Part shown: one piece after another, positions 27,235 to 64,000 of the stretch | Position numbering within the stretch: the stretch's first letter is position 1 | Layout: every line of letters starts with the position of its first letter | Origin: Chryseobacterium gleum | GTDB lineage: Bacteria > Bacteroidota > Bacteroidia > Flavobacteriales > Flavobacteriaceae | Assembly (NCBI GenBank): GCA_945881885.1 | Contig: CAMCVI010000003.1 | Span: 123,393 to 187,392, forward strand | Direction of reading: 5' to 3' | Length of the DNA: 64,000 nucleotides | Program-made: the position numbers and the translations under genes | The notes under the pieces: generated by a model | The model's input: the letters and a program-made list of their open reading frames with translations, nothing else | Databases searched by the model: none | Told to the model about the DNA's origin: nothing

Positions 27235-27246
27235 TGGATAATCAAA

Positions 27247-27277
27247 CCACGCGAAGGGATTCGCGCGGCAGCGGGGG
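27247..27277 (-). repeat. Inverted copy of the GC-rich island repeat
   Basis: The reverse complement reads ccccgctgccgcgcgaat then cccttcgcgtgg, nearly identical to the start of the direct copies at 27390 and 29216. With the copy at 27390 it forms an inverted pair about 140 bases apart. Confidence 0.75.
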
Positions 27278-27389
27278 GTTTTGTATGCTGTAGCATGGGA
27301 CACCATAAATTCTTAACTAAACAATTAATATCATGGAAGAAGACTAAAAAAAATTATTTTATGGAGAAGATGCAGCACAGAAACTAAAT

Positions 27390-27472
27390 CCCCGCTCCCG
27401 CGCGAATCCTTTCGAGTGGTAATGGGAGGTCGCTAAGTACCTCGCAATGAAGTTTAAAAAATTAATTAACCA
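27390..27472 (+). repeat. 83-bp direct repeat, upstream copy
   Basis: This copy matches 29216-29298 with four mismatches and no gaps. It runs from ccccgctcccgcgcgaatcc through ctaagtacctcgcaatga to attaattaacca. Each copy is followed by the start of a gene coding MKV(V/A)GIIAL. The two copies bracket the DGR module. Confidence 0.9.
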
Positions 27473-27476
27473 AATT

Positions 27477-27533
27477 ATGAAAGTAGTAGGAATTATCGCC
27501 TTGTTATGCCTCATTGTAAAGACGACAGCGTAA
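27477..27533 (+). pseudogene. 18-codon stub of the MKVxGIIAL membrane protein
   Basis: The frame MKVVGIIALLCLIVKTTA shares its first nine residues (one change) and its 5' leader with the intact gene at 29315, then diverges and stops. It is the truncated upstream duplicate of that gene's start. Confidence 0.7.
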
Positions 27534-27606
27534 ACATAAACCGACAGACAGAAAAAAAAGGAATTTATATTGCAAAACGAAAATAATAACAATTAAAATA
27601 AAAAAA

Positions 27607-28086
27607 ATGAAACACAAAAAAGTAAATCTCAGTGCTTTGTTGTTAGGCCTCGGACTAGCAGCGCAGTCACAACAAGCAACTACCGCCACAGGCGGTAATG
27701 CTTCGGGTAGCGGAGGAACCGTTGCTTACTCGGTAGGGCAAATTGTTTATACAACCAACACAGGAACCACAGGTTCGGTAGCACAAGGCGTGCAACAACC
27801 CTACGAAATTTCTATTGTGCTGGGTATAGACAATCATTCCATTAATTTAGGATTATCAGCTTACCCCAACCCAACTACCAATTATTTAACGCTAAATGTG
27901 GGCAACTTTGAACTTTCAACTTTGAACTTTCAACTCTATGACATAAGCGGAAAATTAATTGAAAGGCGAAAAATAATAAGCATTAGCGAAACCATTGCAA
28001 TGGAAAACTTACCTACTGCCACCTATTTTTTAAAAGTAACCAACAATAACAAAGAAGTAAAAACATTTAAAATCATTAAAAACTAA
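27607..28086 (+). CDS. Secreted protein with type IX secretion C-terminal domain
   Basis: This 159-residue exported protein has an N-terminal signal (LSALLLGLGLAAQS) and a Gly/Ser/Thr-rich middle (TGGNASGSGGTVAYSVGQIV). A type A T9SS sorting domain follows from about residue 80 (LSAYPNPTTNYLTLNVGNFE, ending TYFLKVTNNNKEVKTFKIIKN). NFELSTLNFQL in that domain is encoded by an aactttgaactttcaac simple repeat. It lies 5 bases before the DGR-like target gene. Such small T9SS proteins accompany bacteroidetal DGR targets, so a shared surface role is likely. Confidence 0.85.
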   Translation: MKHKKVNLSALLLGLGLAAQSQQATTATGGNASGSGGTVAYSVGQIVYTTNTGTTGSVAQGVQQPYEISIVLGIDNHSINLGLSAYPNPTTNYLTLNVGNFELSTLNFQLYDISGKLIERRKIISISETIAMENLPTATYFLKVTNNNKEVKTFKIIKN

Positions 28087-28091
28087 AAAAT

Positions 28092-28958
28092 ATGAAAAAT
28101 ATTTATTCAATTTTAGCAGGGCTATTATTAACGGTAAGCGTATTTGCCCAAGCCCCACAAAAAATGAGTTACCAAGCCGTAATTCGTAACAGTAGTAATG
28201 CATTAATAACCTCTGCGCCTGTTGGAATGAAAATTAGCATATTGCAAGGTTCATCAACCGGTACGGCTGTATATGTAGAAACGCAAACAACAAGCACCAA
28301 CGCCAATGGTTTGGCAAGTTTAGAAATTGGAACAGGCACTGCTGTCACTGGAACATTTGCTGCTATTAACTGGGCGGCAGGACCTTATTTTATTAAAACA
28401 GAAACCGACCCAACAGGCGGAACCGCATACACCATAGCAGGTACAAACGAATTAATGAGTGTGCCTTATGCCTTGTTTAGTGCAAACGCAGGTGTTGGTG
28501 GCTTTACTCACTACCTAGGCGAACCTTATCTTGGGGGAATAATTTTTTACCTATATAAAGGCAGCGATGGTTTAGAACACGGGCTTATAGTAGCCCTTAC
28601 CGAAAGCACAGCTGCTTGGCAAACATCACCTACATTAGTAAACGCAAACCGTACCGAAGATGGCGCGTACAATACTACTTTAATGACGGGAAGCCCAGCT
28701 GCAACATATATCACATCATTAGGTGCAGGTTGGTATCTACCTAGTATTGATGAGTTAGGCTTATTGTATTACAACCGTTACAGTGCTCAAAAAGGCTTAA
28801 GAGCTGGTAGCCACACTCTACTTTCAAATACAGCTCAGTATTGGAGCAGTACCGAGTATAACGCATCGGTTGCGTACAATTTCTTCTTCTACAGTGGTTA
28901 CGCCTACGACAATGTTAAGGCAAGTACCTGCACCGTGCGTGGAGTACGGGCTTTTTAA
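28092..28958 (+). CDS. Secreted DUF1566/C-type-lectin-fold protein, probable DGR target
   Basis: A signal peptide (1-19, SVFAQA) is followed by an N-terminal beta domain (KMSYQAVIRNSSNALITSAP to about residue 140). Residues 145-288 form a DUF1566-type C-type-lectin fold: GGIIFYLYKGSDGLEHGLIV, GAGWYLPSIDELGLLY, QYWSSTEYNASVAYNF and the ending VRGVRAF. That ending is the usual site of diversification in DGR targets. In the last 40 codons the presumed variable positions are mostly aromatic or small residues on NNC/NNT codons, as expected from mutated AAC/AAT. A hairpin and an avd gene follow directly. Confidence 0.85.
   Translation: MKNIYSILAGLLLTVSVFAQAPQKMSYQAVIRNSSNALITSAPVGMKISILQGSSTGTAVYVETQTTSTNANGLASLEIGTGTAVTGTFAAINWAAGPYFIKTETDPTGGTAYTIAGTNELMSVPYALFSANAGVGGFTHYLGEPYLGGIIFYLYKGSDGLEHGLIVALTESTAAWQTSPTLVNANRTEDGAYNTTLMTGSPAATYITSLGAGWYLPSIDELGLLYYNRYSAQKGLRAGSHTLLSNTAQYWSSTEYNASVAYNFFFYSGYAYDNVKASTCTVRGVRAF
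28838..28955 (+). other. Probable DGR variable repeat (VR)
   Basis: This is the 3' end of the target gene from cagtattggagcagtacc to the codons before the stop. Fixed scaffold residues (YWSST, VRGVRAF) alternate with positions held by Tyr, Phe, Ser, Asp and Cys on TAC, TTC, AGT, GAC and TGC codons. The boundaries are estimates because no template repeat is in the window for comparison. Confidence 0.65.
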
Positions 28959-28983
28959 CAATTTATCTATTTAACCATTTAAG

Positions 28984-29004
28984 ATATACCGCTTCGCGGT
29001 ATAT
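28984..29004. promoter_or_regulatory. Hairpin/cruciform downstream of VR
   Basis: A perfect 9-bp stem atataccgc (28984-28992) and gcggtatat (28996-29004) with a 3-base loop lies 25 bases past the target stop. Other DGRs carry a short-stem hairpin at this place that promotes target recognition. It lacks a proper T-run and so is a poor terminator (TTTTATTTTTT follows only loosely). Confidence 0.75.
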
Positions 29005-29021
29005 TTTATTTTTTGAGAATT

Positions 29022-29276
29022 ATGGCTTTGTATTACGATTTACCAGTTTTTAAAGAGGTGTATAAGTTAATACTTATTTTGTTTGAGGTTACAAAAGACT
29101 TCCCAAAAGAGTACAAATACACTCTTGGGCACGATATAAAGCGTGATGGTATAAACTTGGTGCGTAGTATTTACAGAGCTAATAAAGCAAAAAATAAGGT
29201 AGAATATTTAGAAGCCCCCGCTCCCGCGCGAATCCTTTCGCGTGGTAATGGGAGTTCGCTAAGTACCTCGCAATGA
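29022..29276 (+). pseudogene. avd: Avd accessory protein of a DGR, C-terminally truncated
   Basis: From the ATG at 29022, residues 1-64 (ALYYDLPVFKEVYKLILILF, HDIKRDGINLVRSIYRANKA) match the four-helix-bundle Avd/S23 family that partners the DGR reverse transcriptase. Full-length members are near 120 residues. After EYLE the frame enters the GC-rich repeat at 29213-29216, and its last 20 or so residues (APAPARILSRGNGSSLSTSQ) are repeat-encoded. Helices 3 and 4 are lost, so it is almost certainly inactive. No reverse transcriptase follows. Confidence 0.82.
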
Positions 29277-29314: not shown

Positions 29315-29551
29315 ATGAAAGTAGCAGGAATCATCGCCTTAGTTATTGGAAAATTTAGCATAATTTTGAGTGTTGCCAGTTGTTCTGACCCAAAATATAG
29401 TAACACCATTTTTTTTATCAACATCGCTTTTGGATTTGCATGTTTGGTCTTAGGTGATTATTTATTAAATCAATCCTTTAGAATAAAAAAAGCTGTAAAC
29501 AATGAAGAAAATGAAAAGAAGTCGCGTAAAAAATTAATCAAAATCCCCTAA
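29315..29551 (+). CDS. Small two-helix membrane protein
   Basis: This 78-residue protein has two hydrophobic helices (VAGIIALVIGKFSIILSVAS and FFINIAFGFACLVLGDYLL) and a basic tail (KKSRKKLIKIP). It is not a lipoprotein of the standard form, although SCSD lies between the helices. It is the intact version of the stub at 27477. It may be cotranscribed with the gene 10 bases downstream. Function unknown. Confidence 0.65.
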   Translation: MKVAGIIALVIGKFSIILSVASCSDPKYSNTIFFINIAFGFACLVLGDYLLNQSFRIKKAVNNEENEKKSRKKLIKIP

Positions 29552-29891: not shown

Positions 29892-29915
29892 GTCTTTGCG
29901 AGGCACGAAGCAATC
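29892..29915 (+). repeat. Left 24-bp inverted repeat of the GIY-YIG unit
   Basis: gtctttgcgaggcacgaagc followed by aatc. It is a perfect reverse complement of 30235-30258. A partial direct copy of its start (gtctttgcgaggca) lies just before, at 29874-29887. Confidence 0.9.
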
Positions 29916-29931
29916 CCTAACACGATAAAAC

Positions 29932-30234
29932 ATGAAACCAGGATTCATATACATCATTACAAACAAGAACAATACCACATTATACGTTGGTGTCACATCA
30001 AATTTGCCACAACGGATAGTGCAACACAAAGAAAAGACCTATAAAAATTCTTTTTCAGCACGGTACAATTTGAATAAATTAGTTTATTACGAACAATTTC
30101 AAATGATTGGTGATGCCATAGGAAGAGAAAAACAACTAAAAGCAGGCTCAAGAGCAAAAAAAATAGAATTGATTACGACACTTAATCCCAATTGGGAAGA
30201 TTTGTACGAGGACATTAAAAATATCATGACGTGA
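29932..30234 (+). CDS. Small GIY-YIG nuclease-domain protein
   Basis: This 100-residue single-domain protein has the GIY-YIG pattern in GFIYIITNKNNTTLYVGVTS (residues 3-22), the conserved Arg in LPQRIVQHK and the Glu in YYEQFQ near 60. The YhbQ/URI-like solo family has unclear cell roles. The gene exactly fills a unit whose ends are perfect 24-bp inverted repeats, with the stop codon abutting the right repeat. This suggests a small mobile or formerly mobile unit. Confidence 0.88.
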   Translation: MKPGFIYIITNKNNTTLYVGVTSNLPQRIVQHKEKTYKNSFSARYNLNKLVYYEQFQMIGDAIGREKQLKAGSRAKKIELITTLNPNWEDLYEDIKNIMT

Positions 30235-30258
30235 GATTGCTTCGTGCCTCGCAAAGAC
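30235..30258 (-). repeat. Right 24-bp inverted repeat of the GIY-YIG unit
   Basis: A perfect reverse complement of 29892-29915, beginning at the base after the GIY-YIG stop codon. Confidence 0.9.
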
Positions 30259-59756: not shown

Positions 59757-59837
59757 GGGGAGATACTCAAGCGGCCAACGAGGGCAGACTGTAAATCTGC
59801 TGTGAAAACTTCGCAGGTTCGAATCCTGCTCTCCCCA
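59757..59837 (+). tRNA. tRNA-Tyr (anticodon GTA)
   Basis: The acceptor stem GGGGAGA/TCTCCCC, D-stem CTC/GAG, anticodon arm GCAGA-CTGTAAA-TCTGC with GTA, an extended variable arm and T-arm GCAGG-TTCGAAT-CCTGC are all present. It has the long variable region of a type II tRNA. A terminator follows at once. The integrase gene 208 bases downstream makes the 3' end of this tRNA a candidate attachment site. Confidence 0.95.
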
Positions 59838-59839
59838 CA

Positions 59840-60045: not shown

Positions 60046-61089
60046 ATGAAATGGAACGCCAAAATAATCAGCCACAAAGGAACGCCAAGAATTGCTATTT
60101 TTTTTGAAAAAGATGCCACGTTAATAAGCCGAATAAAAACTTTTGAAGATGCACTTTGGAGTGCTTCTAAACGCTACTGGCATTTACCTGATACAGAACA
60201 AAACCGCTTGCACTTTAAACTTCCTTTAGCACCTACTTTATTACCTAATACGGAAGGTATTGCTAGTATTGAAACCTTTAAACGCTACTTGTTATCAAAA
60301 AGATATAGCCCAAATACTATTAATACTTATAGTGAAGCCTTAAAATCGTTTTTAATCTTTTGCAATACCAAAGCAATTAAAGACATTACAAATAATGATG
60401 TTATTTTATATAATAACAACTTTATTTTAAAGCATAATTTATCGTCGTCCTATCAAAACCAGATAGTAAATGCAATCAAACTATATTTTAAAATTGTAAA
60501 AGAAACCGCAATTGAAATTGACAAAATTCATCGTCCTAGAACAGAAAAAGCATTGCCTAATGTTTTGAGCAAAGAAGAGGTCAAACAAATTATTACTGCT
60601 CCTACTAATTTAAAACACAAAACAATGTTAAGTTTAATTTACTCTTGCGGCTTACGATGTGGTGAATTATTAGCATTACAACCACATCATATAGATTCTA
60701 AAAGAAATATAGTTTTATTAAAAAATTCAAAAGGCAAAAAGGATAGAATTGTCCCGCTAAGTCTTAAAATATTAGAGTTATTACGAGAATATTATAAAGT
60801 TTACAAACCCAAAAAGTATTTGTTTGAGGGGCAAAAAGAAGGCGCACCTTATGATGCCAGAAGTATACAACTAGTATTGAAACAAGCTCTACATAAAACA
60901 GGAATAAAAAAGCCTGCCACGCTACATTGGTTGCGACACAGTTATGCTACTCATCTGCTAGAAAGTGGAACAGATTTAAGATATATCCAGGAACTATTAG
61001 GGCATAATAGTAGTAAAACAACGGAAATTTACACACACGTGAGCACAAAAAATATTCAGCAAATTAAAAGCCCATTTGATGATTTGTAA
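60046..61089 (+). CDS. Tyrosine-type integrase of a tRNA-Tyr island
   Basis: This 347-residue recombinase has an N-terminal domain unlike XerC/D (RIKTFEDALWSASKRYWHLP, residues 30-49), a SAM-like core-binding domain (80-175) and a catalytic domain. The catalytic residues are Arg in YSCGLRCGELLAL, His-x-x-Arg in LHWLRHSYATHLLESGTDLR, His in LLGHNSSKTT and Tyr in EIYTHVS. It lacks the extra helix of integron IntI. Its position after a tRNA and before a non-core helicase suggests integration of a mobile island. A distal attachment site is not in the window. Confidence 0.88.
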   Translation: MKWNAKIISHKGTPRIAIFFEKDATLISRIKTFEDALWSASKRYWHLPDTEQNRLHFKLPLAPTLLPNTEGIASIETFKRYLLSKRYSPNTINTYSEALKSFLIFCNTKAIKDITNNDVILYNNNFILKHNLSSSYQNQIVNAIKLYFKIVKETAIEIDKIHRPRTEKALPNVLSKEEVKQIITAPTNLKHKTMLSLIYSCGLRCGELLALQPHHIDSKRNIVLLKNSKGKKDRIVPLSLKILELLREYYKVYKPKKYLFEGQKEGAPYDARSIQLVLKQALHKTGIKKPATLHWLRHSYATHLLESGTDLRYIQELLGHNSSKTTEIYTHVSTKNIQQIKSPFDDL

Positions 61090-61493
61090 GAAAAAAATAT
61101 TATATTTGATTTAAATAAAAAAGCGAAACAAAACTTCGCATATCTACCCAAATATAGGTGTATATACGAAGTTTTATATCGCATATATACAAGTTATAGG
61201 CAAGCGTAAAGACCGACACAACAACCATTAAACTGATAGACAATTATCGAAACATTTGGACGACATATGAACTTTACAGCGGACTTTTTTCCGACACAAC
61301 AGCCCAACGCTTCGTGTTTTATTTTTTTTTCCGACCCGCATTTTTTAAAAACAATTTTAGCCAGTCGCACAAGTGGCACATTTGGTTTTGCCCCTACACA
61401 CAAGGCTGACGCTTGGGCAAAACCAAAAGAGCCACTTTTTGCCACCGCACCAATAATAATCCGTATTTTAACGACCTAATAATTTAAACATAT
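61090..61493. other. Hairpin-rich non-coding stretch after the integrase
   Basis: No gene is supported. Near 61132-61174 an imperfect 16-bp stem is framed by acttcg and cgaagt. At 61372-61393 and 61415-61436 a 22-base imperfect stem has a perfect inner 13 bp (tttggttttgccc, gggcaaaaccaaa). The composition is richer in G and C than the flanks. Open frames here are low-complexity and I treat them as chance. Confidence 0.6.
61372..61436. repeat. Long imperfect hairpin upstream of the helicase
   Basis: Arms 61372-61393 and 61415-61436 start and end with agtggc and gccact. The inner 13 bp are perfect and a few outer positions mismatch. The 21-base loop contains ctgacgctt. Such folded elements are common beside mobile genes in Bacteroidota. 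Confidence 0.75.
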
Positions 61494-62871
61494 ATGTCAA
61501 CAAAGTTTTTTACTAATAGCGAAGAGAACACCTTAATCAAAAAGTTTGAAGGGGTTTTTACTCATAATCCCAACATACAATACTTTGACGCTTTAGTAGG
61601 CTACTTTAGGGCATCAGGTTATTTCCGCATCAGACCCTTTTTAGACAAAGTTCCAAACATTAGAATTTTAGTAGGCATTAACATTGACAAGATGCTTGCA
61701 GATGCTCAAAAGGAAGGACTTGAATTTTTTAAAAATCACGAAAAGACAAAAGAAGATTTCATCAAGAAAATTCAGGAAGACATTGAAAAAGCCAATTATG
61801 ACAAAGATACCGAGAAAGGAATATTACAATTTATTGATGACTTGATTGAAAAGAAAATTCAAATCAAAGCACATCCTGAAAAGAAGATTCATGCTAAAGT
61901 TTATATTTTAAGACCTGAACCTTTTAATTCTAATACTCCTGCAATAGCAATAACAGGTTCTTCAAATCTAACAGATGCAGGTCTTGGTGGTGGTGATTTT
62001 TACAATTATGAATTTAATGTTCAACTAAACGATTATGATGAAGTTAAATTTGCAACGGACGAATTTGAAAAATTGTGGGCTGAATCGGTAGACATTCTAC
62101 CAGTTGACATTCAGAACATTAAAAAGGAAACTTATCTGAACGAAGAAATAACTCCTTTTGAACTTTACATAAAATTATTGACTGAATATTTTGGTAAAAA
62201 CATCGACTATGATCCAGATTCAATAGGCGACCTTCCACAAAATTTCAAAAAACTTTCATACCAAATTGATGCTGTAAATGAAGGTTTCAATATGCTGTTA
62301 AAGCATAATGGATTTTTATTAGCAGATGTTGTGGGTTTAGGGAAAACAGTTATTGCCGCAATGGTGGCTAAAAAGTTTTTAATGCAAAATGGTAGGGATA
62401 ATACCAAAATATTAATTGTTTATCCTCCTGCTGTTGAAAAGAACTGGAAAAATACATTTAAAGATTTTCAATTAGACAAATACACGAAGTTCATCACGAA
62501 TGGTAGTTTAGAAAAAATTTTAGAAGGACATGAGGACTACTGGAGCAAGGAAGATTATGATTTGATAATTGTTGATGAAGCTCATAAGTTTCGTAATTAC
62601 CTCACAGGTGCTTTTCAAAATTTGCAATTAATTTGTAAAAGCCCTAGAGTAAATAAAGGTTTAGTTGAAGGATTACAGAAAAAAGTTATTTTAGTATCTG
62701 CAACACCTTTAAATAATAGACCCGATGATATTTTCTATCAGATTCAAATGTTTCAGGATGCTAGACAATCTACCCTTCCAATAACAAATTTGACATCGTT
62801 TTTTTCACCATTGATGGAAGAATACAAAAACTTAAAACGTTTTGATGCTGTAAATCGTCAGCAAAAAGTGT
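61494..62871 (+). pseudogene. PLD-SNF2 helicase, truncated by IS3 insertion
   Basis: The first 210 residues carry a phospholipase D-like site (KIHAKVYILRPEP; AITGSSNLTDAGL). A SNF2-type helicase core follows: LSYQIDAVNEGFNMLLKHNG, Walker A LADVVGLGKTV, LIIVDEAHKFRN and VILVSATPLNNRPDD. The frame then runs into the IS end near 62869 and stops at a codon supplied by the IS (62874-62876). The second helicase domain and the C-terminus are missing; full-length relatives run to about 1000 residues. Such proteins occur in restriction and phage-defence loci. A longer ORF end at 62876 includes the IS-derived stop. Confidence 0.82.
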
Positions 62872-62928
62872 ACTGATTTAGTCAAAAACTAAGAGAGTGT
62901 TTTCAAAAATTATTAAATTTGAATTATT

Positions 62929-63282
62929 ATGAAAACACCAAGAAAACAAACAACAGAAAATTACATTAAAGAGATTCGAAGAAACACCAGAAGAATCTTT
63001 AGTTCAGAACAGAAAATACAAATCGTTATGGAAGCATTACGAGCTGAAATGTCTGTTGCAGAATTATGTAGGAAGTATTCCATTAATGAATCCCAGTTTT
63101 ATAAGTGGAATAAAGAATTTTTAGAAGCGGGTAAGAAAAGATTATCAGGTGACACAACAAGAGAAGCTACTAGCGATGAAGTAACAGAACTCAAGAAAGA
63201 GAATCAACGTTTAAAAGTCATGGTTGCCGATTTAGTTTTACGCTATGATATCGTAAAAAAAAGCTTGGAAATGCTGGATTAA
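62929..63282 (+). CDS. IS3-family OrfA
   Basis: This 117-residue protein has an N-terminal helix-turn-helix (MSVAELCRKYSINESQFYKW near residue 41) and a leucine-zipper-like C-terminus (ELKKENQRLKVMVADLVLRY), the standard OrfA form that binds the terminal repeats. An A8G run (63255-63263) read as GTA AAA AAA AGC can shift ribosomes by -1 into orfB. Confidence 0.93.
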   Translation: MKTPRKQTTENYIKEIRRNTRRIFSSEQKIQIVMEALRAEMSVAELCRKYSINESQFYKWNKEFLEAGKKRLSGDTTREATSDEVTELKKENQRLKVMVADLVLRYDIVKKSLEMLD

Positions 63283-63302
63283 CTGACAAATTCAAGAAAT
63301 AC

Positions 63303-64000
63303 ATGCGACTTACTATATCCGAAAAACAAGAAATCATTCACATGGTTGTTCGATCTGAAATTGGAGTAAACAGAACGCTTCGGGAGATTGGAATTAACAA
63401 GAGTACTTTTTACAATTGGTATCATGCTTATAGCGAAAATGGTATTGAAGGTTTGCTTCCATCCAAACGAGTGTCAAACAGACAATGGAACTGTATACCT
63501 CAAGAGCAAAAGAATTTAGTTGTAAAATTAGCTTTGGATTATCCTGATTTATCTTCTCGTGAATTAGCTTATAAAATGACCGATGAACAACAAATATTCA
63601 TATCAGAATCAAGTGTTTACAGAATTTTAAAGTCAAGAGGTTTAATTACAGCTCCAGCTCATATTTTTCTGAGTGCGGGAAATGAATTTACAGACAAAAC
63701 AGGCTTTGTTCATCAAATGTGGCAAACGGATTTTACCTATTTTAAAATATTGGGATGGGGATGGTATTATTTAAGTACGGTTTTAGACGATTACAGCAGG
63801 TACATTGTGCACTGGGAACTTTGTTCAAATATGAAAGCCGATGATGTGAAAAGAACCGTGGATACTGCGATTCAAAAAGCTAAATTAATTACCAAACAAA
63901 AACCAAAGTTACTATCGGATAATGGCTCGTGTTATATTGCAAGTGAACTAAAATCATATTTAAAAGACAATTATCAAATGCAGCAAGTGCATGGCAGACC
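63303..64000 (+). CDS. IS3-family OrfB transposase, 3' end outside window
   Basis: From the ATG at 63303 (MRLTISEKQEIIHMVVRSE) the frame is open to the window end. It is in the -1 frame to orfA with no stop between 63263 and 63303, so an OrfAB fusion is possible. The catalytic core shows the first Asp in HQMWQTDFTYFKI and the second in LLSDNGSCYIAS; the Glu lies outside the window. Confidence 0.92.
   Translation, partial: MRLTISEKQEIIHMVVRSEIGVNRTLREIGINKSTFYNWYHAYSENGIEGLLPSKRVSNRQWNCIPQEQKNLVVKLALDYPDLSSRELAYKMTDEQQIFISESSVYRILKSRGLITAPAHIFLSAGNEFTDKTGFVHQMWQTDFTYFKILGWGWYYLSTVLDDYSRYIVHWELCSNMKADDVKRTVDTAIQKAKLITKQKPKLLSDNGSCYIASELKSYLKDNYQMQQVHGR

What the first reader, a model, noticed from the sequence alone, without database searches (positions are those of the whole stretch)
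27607..29276. Decayed diversity-generating retroelement in a cassette-like island
Seen: a small T9SS protein, a secreted DUF1566 target ending VRGVRAF, a hairpin, and an avd gene in that order. Known: DGR loci of Bacteroidota carry a lectin-fold target, Avd, a template repeat and a reverse transcriptase. Here the reverse transcriptase and template repeat are absent and avd is cut. Inference: the target was diversified in the past and is now frozen, or is still mutated in trans by a DGR elsewhere in the genome.
Basis: partly seen in the sequence, partly recalled or inferred. Interest (0 to 1): 0.8.

Follow-up and report, generated by a model that had tools for sequence, protein, structure and literature searches.

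The report
Frozen mutation machine in gene cassette
A secreted lectin-like bacterial gene that was likely once rewritten by a mutation-making retroelement now stands without that machinery, and relatives in other bacteria carry such retroelements, one of them complete, inside integron-like gene cassettes, which is likely how this one arrived.

Summary
Window 27503-29215 carries a T9SS partner gene, an Lcl_C-like target, a hairpin and the first 66 codons of avd. Searches of the 99.46%-complete genome found no reverse transcriptase and no second VR-like sequence. Relatives with the same gene order go on to TR and RT, with TR/VR mismatches almost only at template adenines (21/21, 15/16, 14/14, 24/30, 30/33, 30/33). 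The target is most likely a frozen DGR product. Its hairpin loop is TTC, against GNA in all 11 relatives with that hairpin; a comparable loop change nearly abolished homing in phage BPP-1.

Beyond the finding: homology to relatives starts exactly at G|TTATGCC (57/57 and 56/57 identical after it, chance before it). In relatives this is the left end of an integron-like cassette. attC-like palindromes flank decayed DGRs (L016, L017) and a complete DGR (L040, 3.5 kb); 20 of 25 neighbouring site pairs have exactly complementary cassette ends. A homologue of the array-heading integrase lies at window 60046-61089; it lacks about 42 residues of the IntI-specific region. Not shown: recombination itself, or any attC-like site in the window.

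The parts
27390..27502 (+). Left direct repeat and 5' piece of a cut host gene (X'), left flank of the cassette
   Evidence: Repeat pair D1/D7; homology to L016, L017 and L047 stops at its right edge
27503..27510 (+). Cassette left boundary, G|TTATGCC
   Evidence: 57/57 and 56/57 identical after it to L016 and L017, 11/40 and 8/40 before it; L047 40/57 and 15/40
27607..28086 (+). Small T9SS-sorted partner protein, 159 aa
   Evidence: Por_Secre_tail; also precedes the target in complete DGRs
28092..28958 (+). Secreted Lcl_C-like DGR target, 288 aa, open reading frame
   Evidence: PF07603 30.6 bits, below cutoff; low-confidence model, best PDB match Legionella Lcl C-terminal domain
28839..28955 (+). 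Variable repeat (VR), frozen
   Evidence: Lines up with VRs of complete DGRs; codon-position signature; hypervariable among homologues
28984..29004 (+). Hairpin after the VR, loop TTC in place of GNA
   Evidence: role of such hairpins from PMC3240598 (passages)
29022..29214 (+). 5' fragment of avd, 66 codons
   Evidence: bAvd; 98% identical to intact avd of L016 over 66 residues
29216..29298 (+). Right direct repeat, joined to the cut avd
   Evidence: homology to L016 ends here
29315..29551 (+). Full copy of host gene X, whose start resembles X'
59757..59838 (+). tRNA-Tyr before the integrase
60046..61089 (+). XerA-type integrase, 347 aa, homologue of the integrase heading the cassette array in L205
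   Evidence: 40% identity over 376 columns; NF040815 224.3 bits, cutoff 220; TIGR02249 199.3, cutoff 265
61130..61200 (+). attI-like stretch: 9-bp inverted repeat and a possible first-cassette start, G of GTTATAGG at 61193
   Evidence: by analogy with L205 and L207, the partner site is not in the contig

Best explanation
The island is a DGR remnant that keeps the T9SS partner gene, the target gene and the first 66 codons of avd, with no reverse transcriptase or template repeat found in the genome, and it likely arrived as an integron-like gene cassette whose left end is still exact. Shown: gene order and homology to complete DGRs, truncation of avd, a reversed hairpin loop, a VR that differs from its closest relatives mainly at codon positions 1 and 2, and a homology boundary at G|TTATGCC shared by four genomes with four different left flanks. 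Inferred: the target was diversified by adenine-directed retrohoming in the past; a deletion removed the rest of avd, TR, RT and the right attachment site; the target is now fixed and kept because the frozen variant is useful; a XerA-type integrase moved the cassette.
For: Complete relatives with the same order and adenine-directed TR/VR differences. No RT, TR or second VR-like copy in the own genome, while PF00078 does find an RT in each of the five genomes of full-length DGR loci. Graded decay in relatives: L016 has intact avd and a TR stub, L017, L021, L062, L080 have avd pieces, all five genomes without RT; in the genus the two intact avd loci have RT and the four broken ones have no intact RT. 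Codon-position signature against L016, L017, L018, L020. Hairpin loop GNA in 11 of 11 relatives with that hairpin, TTC in the window. Exact left boundary. attC-like sites 44 hits against 0 in shuffles, 20 of 25 neighbouring pairs with exactly complementary ends; complete DGR between two such sites in L040; decayed DGR between them in L016, and with matching ends in L017. Integrase homologue in the window.
Against: No attC-like site in the window or in 290 kb of this genome; the right end is lost, so the cassette reading rests on the left end. The L016 DGR cassette itself fails the end test (1 of 5). The codon-position test is not significant against L019 and L021, and the adenine-column test against two distant TRs is weak (P 0.16 and 0.047). 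A 13% shared-motif-type background exists: the start motif also occurs on the reverse strand in 4 of 77 stretches. The direct repeat on both sides is unexplained. The integrase lies 31 kb away from the cassette.
Confidence: 0.66

Rival explanations
1. The DGR remnant and frozen target are real, but it reached this site by ordinary illegitimate or homologous recombination; the exact left end is microhomology (GTTAT) with host gene X, not integrase action.
For: Gene X has GTTAT at the matching place; a direct repeat flanks the island; no attC-like site found here.
Against: The same boundary base is met with four different left flanks, and in L016 it is the edge of an attC-like site.
Confidence: 0.2
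2. The target is still diversified in trans by a DGR elsewhere in the genome or in other cells of the population; the local avd is dispensable.
For: Trans activity is argued for some loci of another bacterium (PMC10907252, section 8); 34 contigs leave small gaps.
Against: No RT or TR-like copy found; hairpin loop reversed; same-species proteins P0001 (4 contigs) and P0002 differ in the VR by one residue.
Confidence: 0.08
3. An ordinary Lcl_C-type secreted protein that was never a DGR target; the avd hit is an unrelated IVP-like helix bundle.
For: The Lcl_C hit is below its cutoff; many loci with such targets show no avd or RT nearby; the genome has six true IVP genes.
Against: Avd scores; synteny with complete DGRs; VR signature.
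Confidence: 0.03
4. Assembly artefact: the right junction at 29215 joins two places wrongly and the real locus is a complete DGR.
For: The junction lies in a repeated sequence.
Against: No RT or TR on any contig; the same protein comes from 4 contigs, and a one-residue variant from another, though their independence is unknown.
Confidence: 0.03

Closest known systems
Diversity-generating retroelements (prototype phage BPP-1; hairpin work in PMC3240598, passages read)
   Same: Target with 3' VR, hairpin after it, avd; complete relatives have TR and RT with adenine-directed differences
   Different: Here TR and RT are gone, avd is cut, hairpin loop reversed
Degenerate DGR loci of Thiohalocapsa PB-PSB1 (PMC10907252, passages and section 8 read)
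   Same: DGR loci with machinery missing or pseudogenised
   Different: That genome has intact DGRs that can act in trans; here none was found, and the unit is cassette-bounded
Leftover DGR targets in Treponema denticola isolates without RT and TR (PMC4891356, passages read)
   Same: Targets outlive the retroelement
   Different: Other phylum; no cassette boundary described in the passages I saw
Integron gene cassettes and attC sites (PMC9024848 and PMC8618304, passages read; general features recalled)
   Same: Palindromic sites between genes, complementary cassette ends, G|TT boundary, integrase followed by a first cassette
   Different: Integrase of XerA type lacking about 42 residues of the IntI-specific region; sites of about 105-147 bp without the canonical RYYYAAC/GTTRRRY boxes
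Group II introns in integrons (PMC7923331, search listing only)
   Same: A retroelement found with cassette arrays
   Different: Another retroelement class; not a mutagenic system carried as a cassette's own content

Membership tests
Functional DGR | Reverse transcriptase of DGR type | tested here: not met
   0 hits in G000
Functional DGR | Template repeat matching the VR except at adenines | tested here: not met
   Only the VR itself matches
Functional DGR | Intact Avd | tested here: not met
   66 codons only
Decayed DGR locus | Same gene order as complete DGRs | tested here: met
Decayed DGR locus | VR with signs of past adenine-directed change | tested here: met
   Codon positions 1 and 2 favoured against L016, L017, L018, L020; not significant for L019, L021. 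Direct test against distant TRs weak
Integron-like gene cassette (window copy) | Exact left boundary at G|TT | tested here: met
Integron-like gene cassette (window copy) | attC-like site at the right end with complementary cassette ends | tested here: not met
   Right end lost; no site in the window or 290 kb of the genome
Integron-like gene cassette (complete DGR in L040) | attC-like sites on both sides and complementary ends | tested here: met
Integron (IntI type) | Integrase passing the integron-integrase model with the IntI-specific insert | tested here: not met
   TIGR02249 199.3 bits, cutoff 265; about 42 residues short against IntI4
Integron (IntI type) | Integrase-catalysed attI x attC recombination | not testable with these tools
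23S rRNA intervening-sequence protein | PF05635 above cutoff and best family | tested here: not met
   20.5 bits for the fragment, 26.0 for the intact relative, cutoff 33.8
C-type-lectin-fold target (Lcl_C) | Fold | tested here: inconclusive
   Model mean pLDDT 57; best PDB match Lcl C-terminal domain, E 4.8e-5, TM by target length 0.52

The most novel reading that the evidence does not exclude
Bacteroidota have an integron-like system, run by a XerA-type integrase without the IntI insert, that shuffles whole diversity-generating retroelements and their frozen lectin-like targets as gene cassettes. Diversification and dispersal are coupled: a DGR makes variants in one host, cassettes carry them off, and the machinery is shed while the chosen variant stays, as at this locus.
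Probability: 0.45. Interest if true: 0.88.

Novelty: new variant of a known kind. Interest (0 to 1): 0.74.

Why it matters
How DGRs spread between distant bacteria, and what becomes of their targets, is open. A complete DGR inside an integron-like cassette with exact ends (L040), and decayed versions of such cassettes in other genomes, give a testable route for both. In the sampled genus the avd loci split cleanly, two intact with RT and four broken without an intact RT, so frozen targets can be compared with active ones. A cassette system with a non-IntI integrase could be missed by searches that require IntI.

Tried and rejected
Adenine-column test of the window VR against two distant TRs: too diverged, weak; replaced by the codon-position test, reported with its negatives. 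Search for an empty site in 398 genomes of the genus: the listed hits are to the GIY-YIG and HTH parts singly, no empty site seen. Plasmid source: one weak partial match. Phage source: DGR RT matches in 107 phage records, all under 60% identity. Rfam: no family at the locus. Structure: low confidence, used only as a hint. Idea that avd breakpoints share one hotspot: the alignment shows different breakpoints, dropped. The RT in L019's genome (L157) reads as another RT type in another neighbourhood (by eye). A first attC-like scan required TAAC/GTTA; the wider scan replaced it.

Papers, what I saw: passages only: PMC8144416, PMC7517822, PMC3240598, PMC4891356, PMC9024848, PMC8618304; passages and section 8: PMC10907252; looked up, none of my terms found: PMC6642488, PMC8352920; all others search listings only.

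Full report
WHAT IS THERE. Window 27503-29215 holds a 159-aa T9SS protein, a 288-aa secreted protein with an Lcl_C-like end, a hairpin, and 66 codons of avd. The genome is 2.03 Mb in 34 contigs, 99.46% complete. It gave no RVT_1 hit, no hit to a DGR RT, and no second VR-like sequence with up to 3 mismatches. PF00078 finds an RT in each of the five genomes of full-length DGR loci, so the search works.

THE AVD CALL. The fragment fits bAvd (35.5 bits) better than 23S IVP (20.5), both below cutoff. Six real IVP genes lie elsewhere in the genome. The intact 117-aa copy in L016 passes bAvd at 76.3 and fails IVP, and hits the Avd families of NCBI (69.2, cutoff 80) and PHROGs.

COMPLETE RELATIVES. 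Of 80 loci found in named genomes, five have target, avd and RT over its length (L022, L025, L040, L059, L087); a sixth, L070, has avd, TR and a cut RT. L059 may itself be decaying: its avd matches in two pieces and its RT reads with one internal TGA. In all six a TR lies between avd and RT. Mismatches at template adenines are 21 of 21 (L022), 15 of 16 (L025), 14 of 14 (L040), 24 of 30 (L059), 30 of 33 (L087) and 30 of 33 (L070). L153 (G179) has the same coordinates as L070's record and is not counted again.

STAGES OF LOSS. L016 keeps intact avd and only a short 5' stub of a TR. L017, L021, L062 and L080 keep 5' pieces of avd. None of these five genomes gave an RT; they are MAGs or drafts of unknown completeness. 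In the sampled genus (398 genomes) avd is found in 7, one of them (G096) a distant 26% match; the DGR RT is found in 2. Those two have intact avd. The other four (window, G001, G179, G374) have cut or stop-bearing avd; G179 has a 5' piece of RT and G374 a 3' piece.

THE FROZEN VR. Identity to L016 is 91% in the T9SS gene, 86% and 81% in the target before the VR, 73% in the VR core, 95% in avd. Changes in the gene body sit mostly at third codon positions; in the VR they sit more at positions 1 and 2 (window versus L016: 30/19/70 against 9/9/4, P 8e-4; L017 2.9e-5; L018 1.8e-4; L020 2e-3; not significant for L019, 0.097, and L021, 0.26, the six pairs with the window out of 21 computed). The direct test against distant TRs is weak: adenine columns 21 of 47 against 19 of 73 other columns for L025 (P 0.047), 19 of 44 against 22 of 76 for L022 (P 0.16). 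In the protein search (best 120 of 6512 listed) the VR is less like the window's than the body is in 118 of 118 others. Over 67 distinct VRs some positions never or hardly change while others take 11 to 14 residues. P0001 (the window's protein, 4 contigs) and P0002 (1 contig) share the whole protein except one residue, which lies in the VR (Y to H). In both TRs the matching codon is TTC, so this would be a change at a non-adenine base. Whether these contigs are independent strains is unknown.

THE HAIRPIN. Eleven of 20 other loci examined have a GC-rich hairpin with a three-base loop after the target, and in all 11 the sense loop is GNA (L070 has a further, unrelated match with loop AAG); L151 and L152 have a GTAA loop and L021 a degenerate stem, by eye; six have none. 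The window alone has TTC. In BPP-1 the loop sequence is critical, and GAAA to CTTT dropped homing to near background (PMC3240598, passages). That the same holds in Bacteroidota is inference.

THE CASSETTE BOUNDARY. Homology between window and L016 begins at base 27503: 57 of 57 identical after it, 11 of 40 before it; with L017 56 of 57 and 8 of 40; with L047 40 of 57 (ungapped) and 15 of 40. In L016 the boundary is the right edge of a 147-bp imperfect palindrome. The 22 fetched stretches of that genome hold 14 full-length copies of it (96.6-100% identical) and two partial ones. These, and a shorter form of about 105 bp, share ends nnnnTAACA and CAAACGTTAnnnn (20 aligned). DNA folds: z -5.6 and -9.4 in that genome, -3.0, -3.0, -2.6, -2.4, -2.8 for sites in L040 (two), L017, L091 and L083.

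THE SITE SCAN. A general scan gave 44 hits (41 distinct, since L016 repeats L196) in 2.14 M strand-bases and none in 1.07 Mb of shuffled sequence. It covered the loci up to L095 longer than 3 kb (the 80 loci and the own-genome loci that long), five from the genus, 9 of the 22 stretches of G061 (those with BLAST copies), and the window. Where two sites follow each other, start and end of the cassette are complementary beyond GTT in 5 of 5 places for 20 of 25 pairs; total 113 against a shuffled mean of 75.9 and maximum of 92 in 10,000. The five exceptions (L017, L071, L196, L201, L209) include L016's DGR cassette (in L196, 1 of 5), whose end equals that of another target-bearing cassette in L205 (TGCAACTAAC); I read it as a hybrid.

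DGRS AS CASSETTES. L040 carries a complete DGR (T9SS, target, avd, TR, RT) between two attC-like sites, start GTTAGCATT, end AATGCTAAC, 3.5 kb. L022's RT is followed by the same end sequence and a similar palindrome, seen by eye. L017 holds a decayed DGR with start GTTATGCCT and end AGGCATAAC; its left site is cut by the contig end. A scanned site lies within 900 bases upstream of the target in 6 of 80 loci (L016, L040, L071, L083, L091, L095). The motif GTTAnnnnTCA[GT] is there in 15 of 77 against 4 of 77 on the reverse strand and 2.6 in shuffles. So most targets in the set show no cassette sign.

THE INTEGRASE. In L205 an integrase gene is followed by a first-cassette start that pairs with the end before the first attC-like site; in L207 the same follows the end of an integrase gene cut by the contig start. 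The window has a homologue (40% over 376 columns) at 60046-61089, after tRNA-Tyr, followed by a 9-bp inverted repeat and GTTATAGG. It passes NF040815 (224.3, cutoff 220; named site-specific tyrosine recombinase/integron integrase) and fails TIGR02249 (199.3, cutoff 265); the L205 integrase is below both cutoffs (194.0 and 180.4). Against IntI4, residues 183-247 face only 252-274 of the window protein, about 42 residues short. Further on lie an interrupted ORF, an IS-like pair of ORFs (by eye) and the contig end, so an array, if any, cannot be read. No attC-like site appears in 290 kb of this genome.

HOW IT MOST LIKELY WORKS. Step 1 (shown in relatives): a DGR with a secreted lectin-like target sits in a cassette. 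Step 2 (inferred): an integrase moved a cassette of the GTTATGCC class into this lineage. Step 3 (a state shown, an event inferred): avd's 3' part, TR, RT and the right end were lost, and the hairpin loop reversed. Step 4 (inferred): the last VR variant stays fixed in an open reading frame and is secreted with its T9SS partner. The direct repeat on both sides, with a cut gene X' on the left and full gene X on the right, is not explained.

KNOWN OR NEW. Degenerate DGR loci and leftover targets are reported (PMC10907252; PMC4891356). Integrons are reported in Bacteroidota, rarely (PMC9024848; PMC8618304; passages). I saw no report of a DGR in an integron cassette in the listings; these list only top hits of an open-licence library.

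Noticed in passing
L205 14727-17211 (G061:C42): Another T9SS protein plus a 447-aa protein with the target's N-terminal domain forms a well-formed cassette (start GTTAGTTGCA, end TGCAACTAAC) in the array headed by the integrase.
   Followed up: partly
L201 1441-3406 (G061:C22): A second DGR-type target (372 aa, ends VRAVRAF) with a T9SS partner lies between two attC-like sites in the same genome.
   Followed up: partly
window 61494-64000: A helicase-like ORF stops at 62876 and is followed by two ORFs that look like an IS transposase pair (by eye) up to the contig end.
   Followed up: no
window 29892-30258: A GIY-YIG gene is flanked by perfect 24-nt inverted repeats; parts of this stretch match in many genomes of the genus.
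   Followed up: no
proteins P0077-P0120: Many listed homologues share nearly one and the same VR (DASYAFRYSFLDG), as if one frozen variant had spread widely.
   Followed up: no
L151, L152 (G144, G311): The two intact DGRs of the genus sample serve another kind of target (ends SVRCLRD), with a GTAA hairpin loop.
   Followed up: no
window 27246-27420: Long palindrome (27246-27276 with 27390-27420) and other local repeats left of the cassette; not attC-like by the scan, origin unknown.
   Followed up: no
L025 3982-4057: Rfam group II intron match just after the RT of this complete DGR, at the contig end.
   Followed up: no
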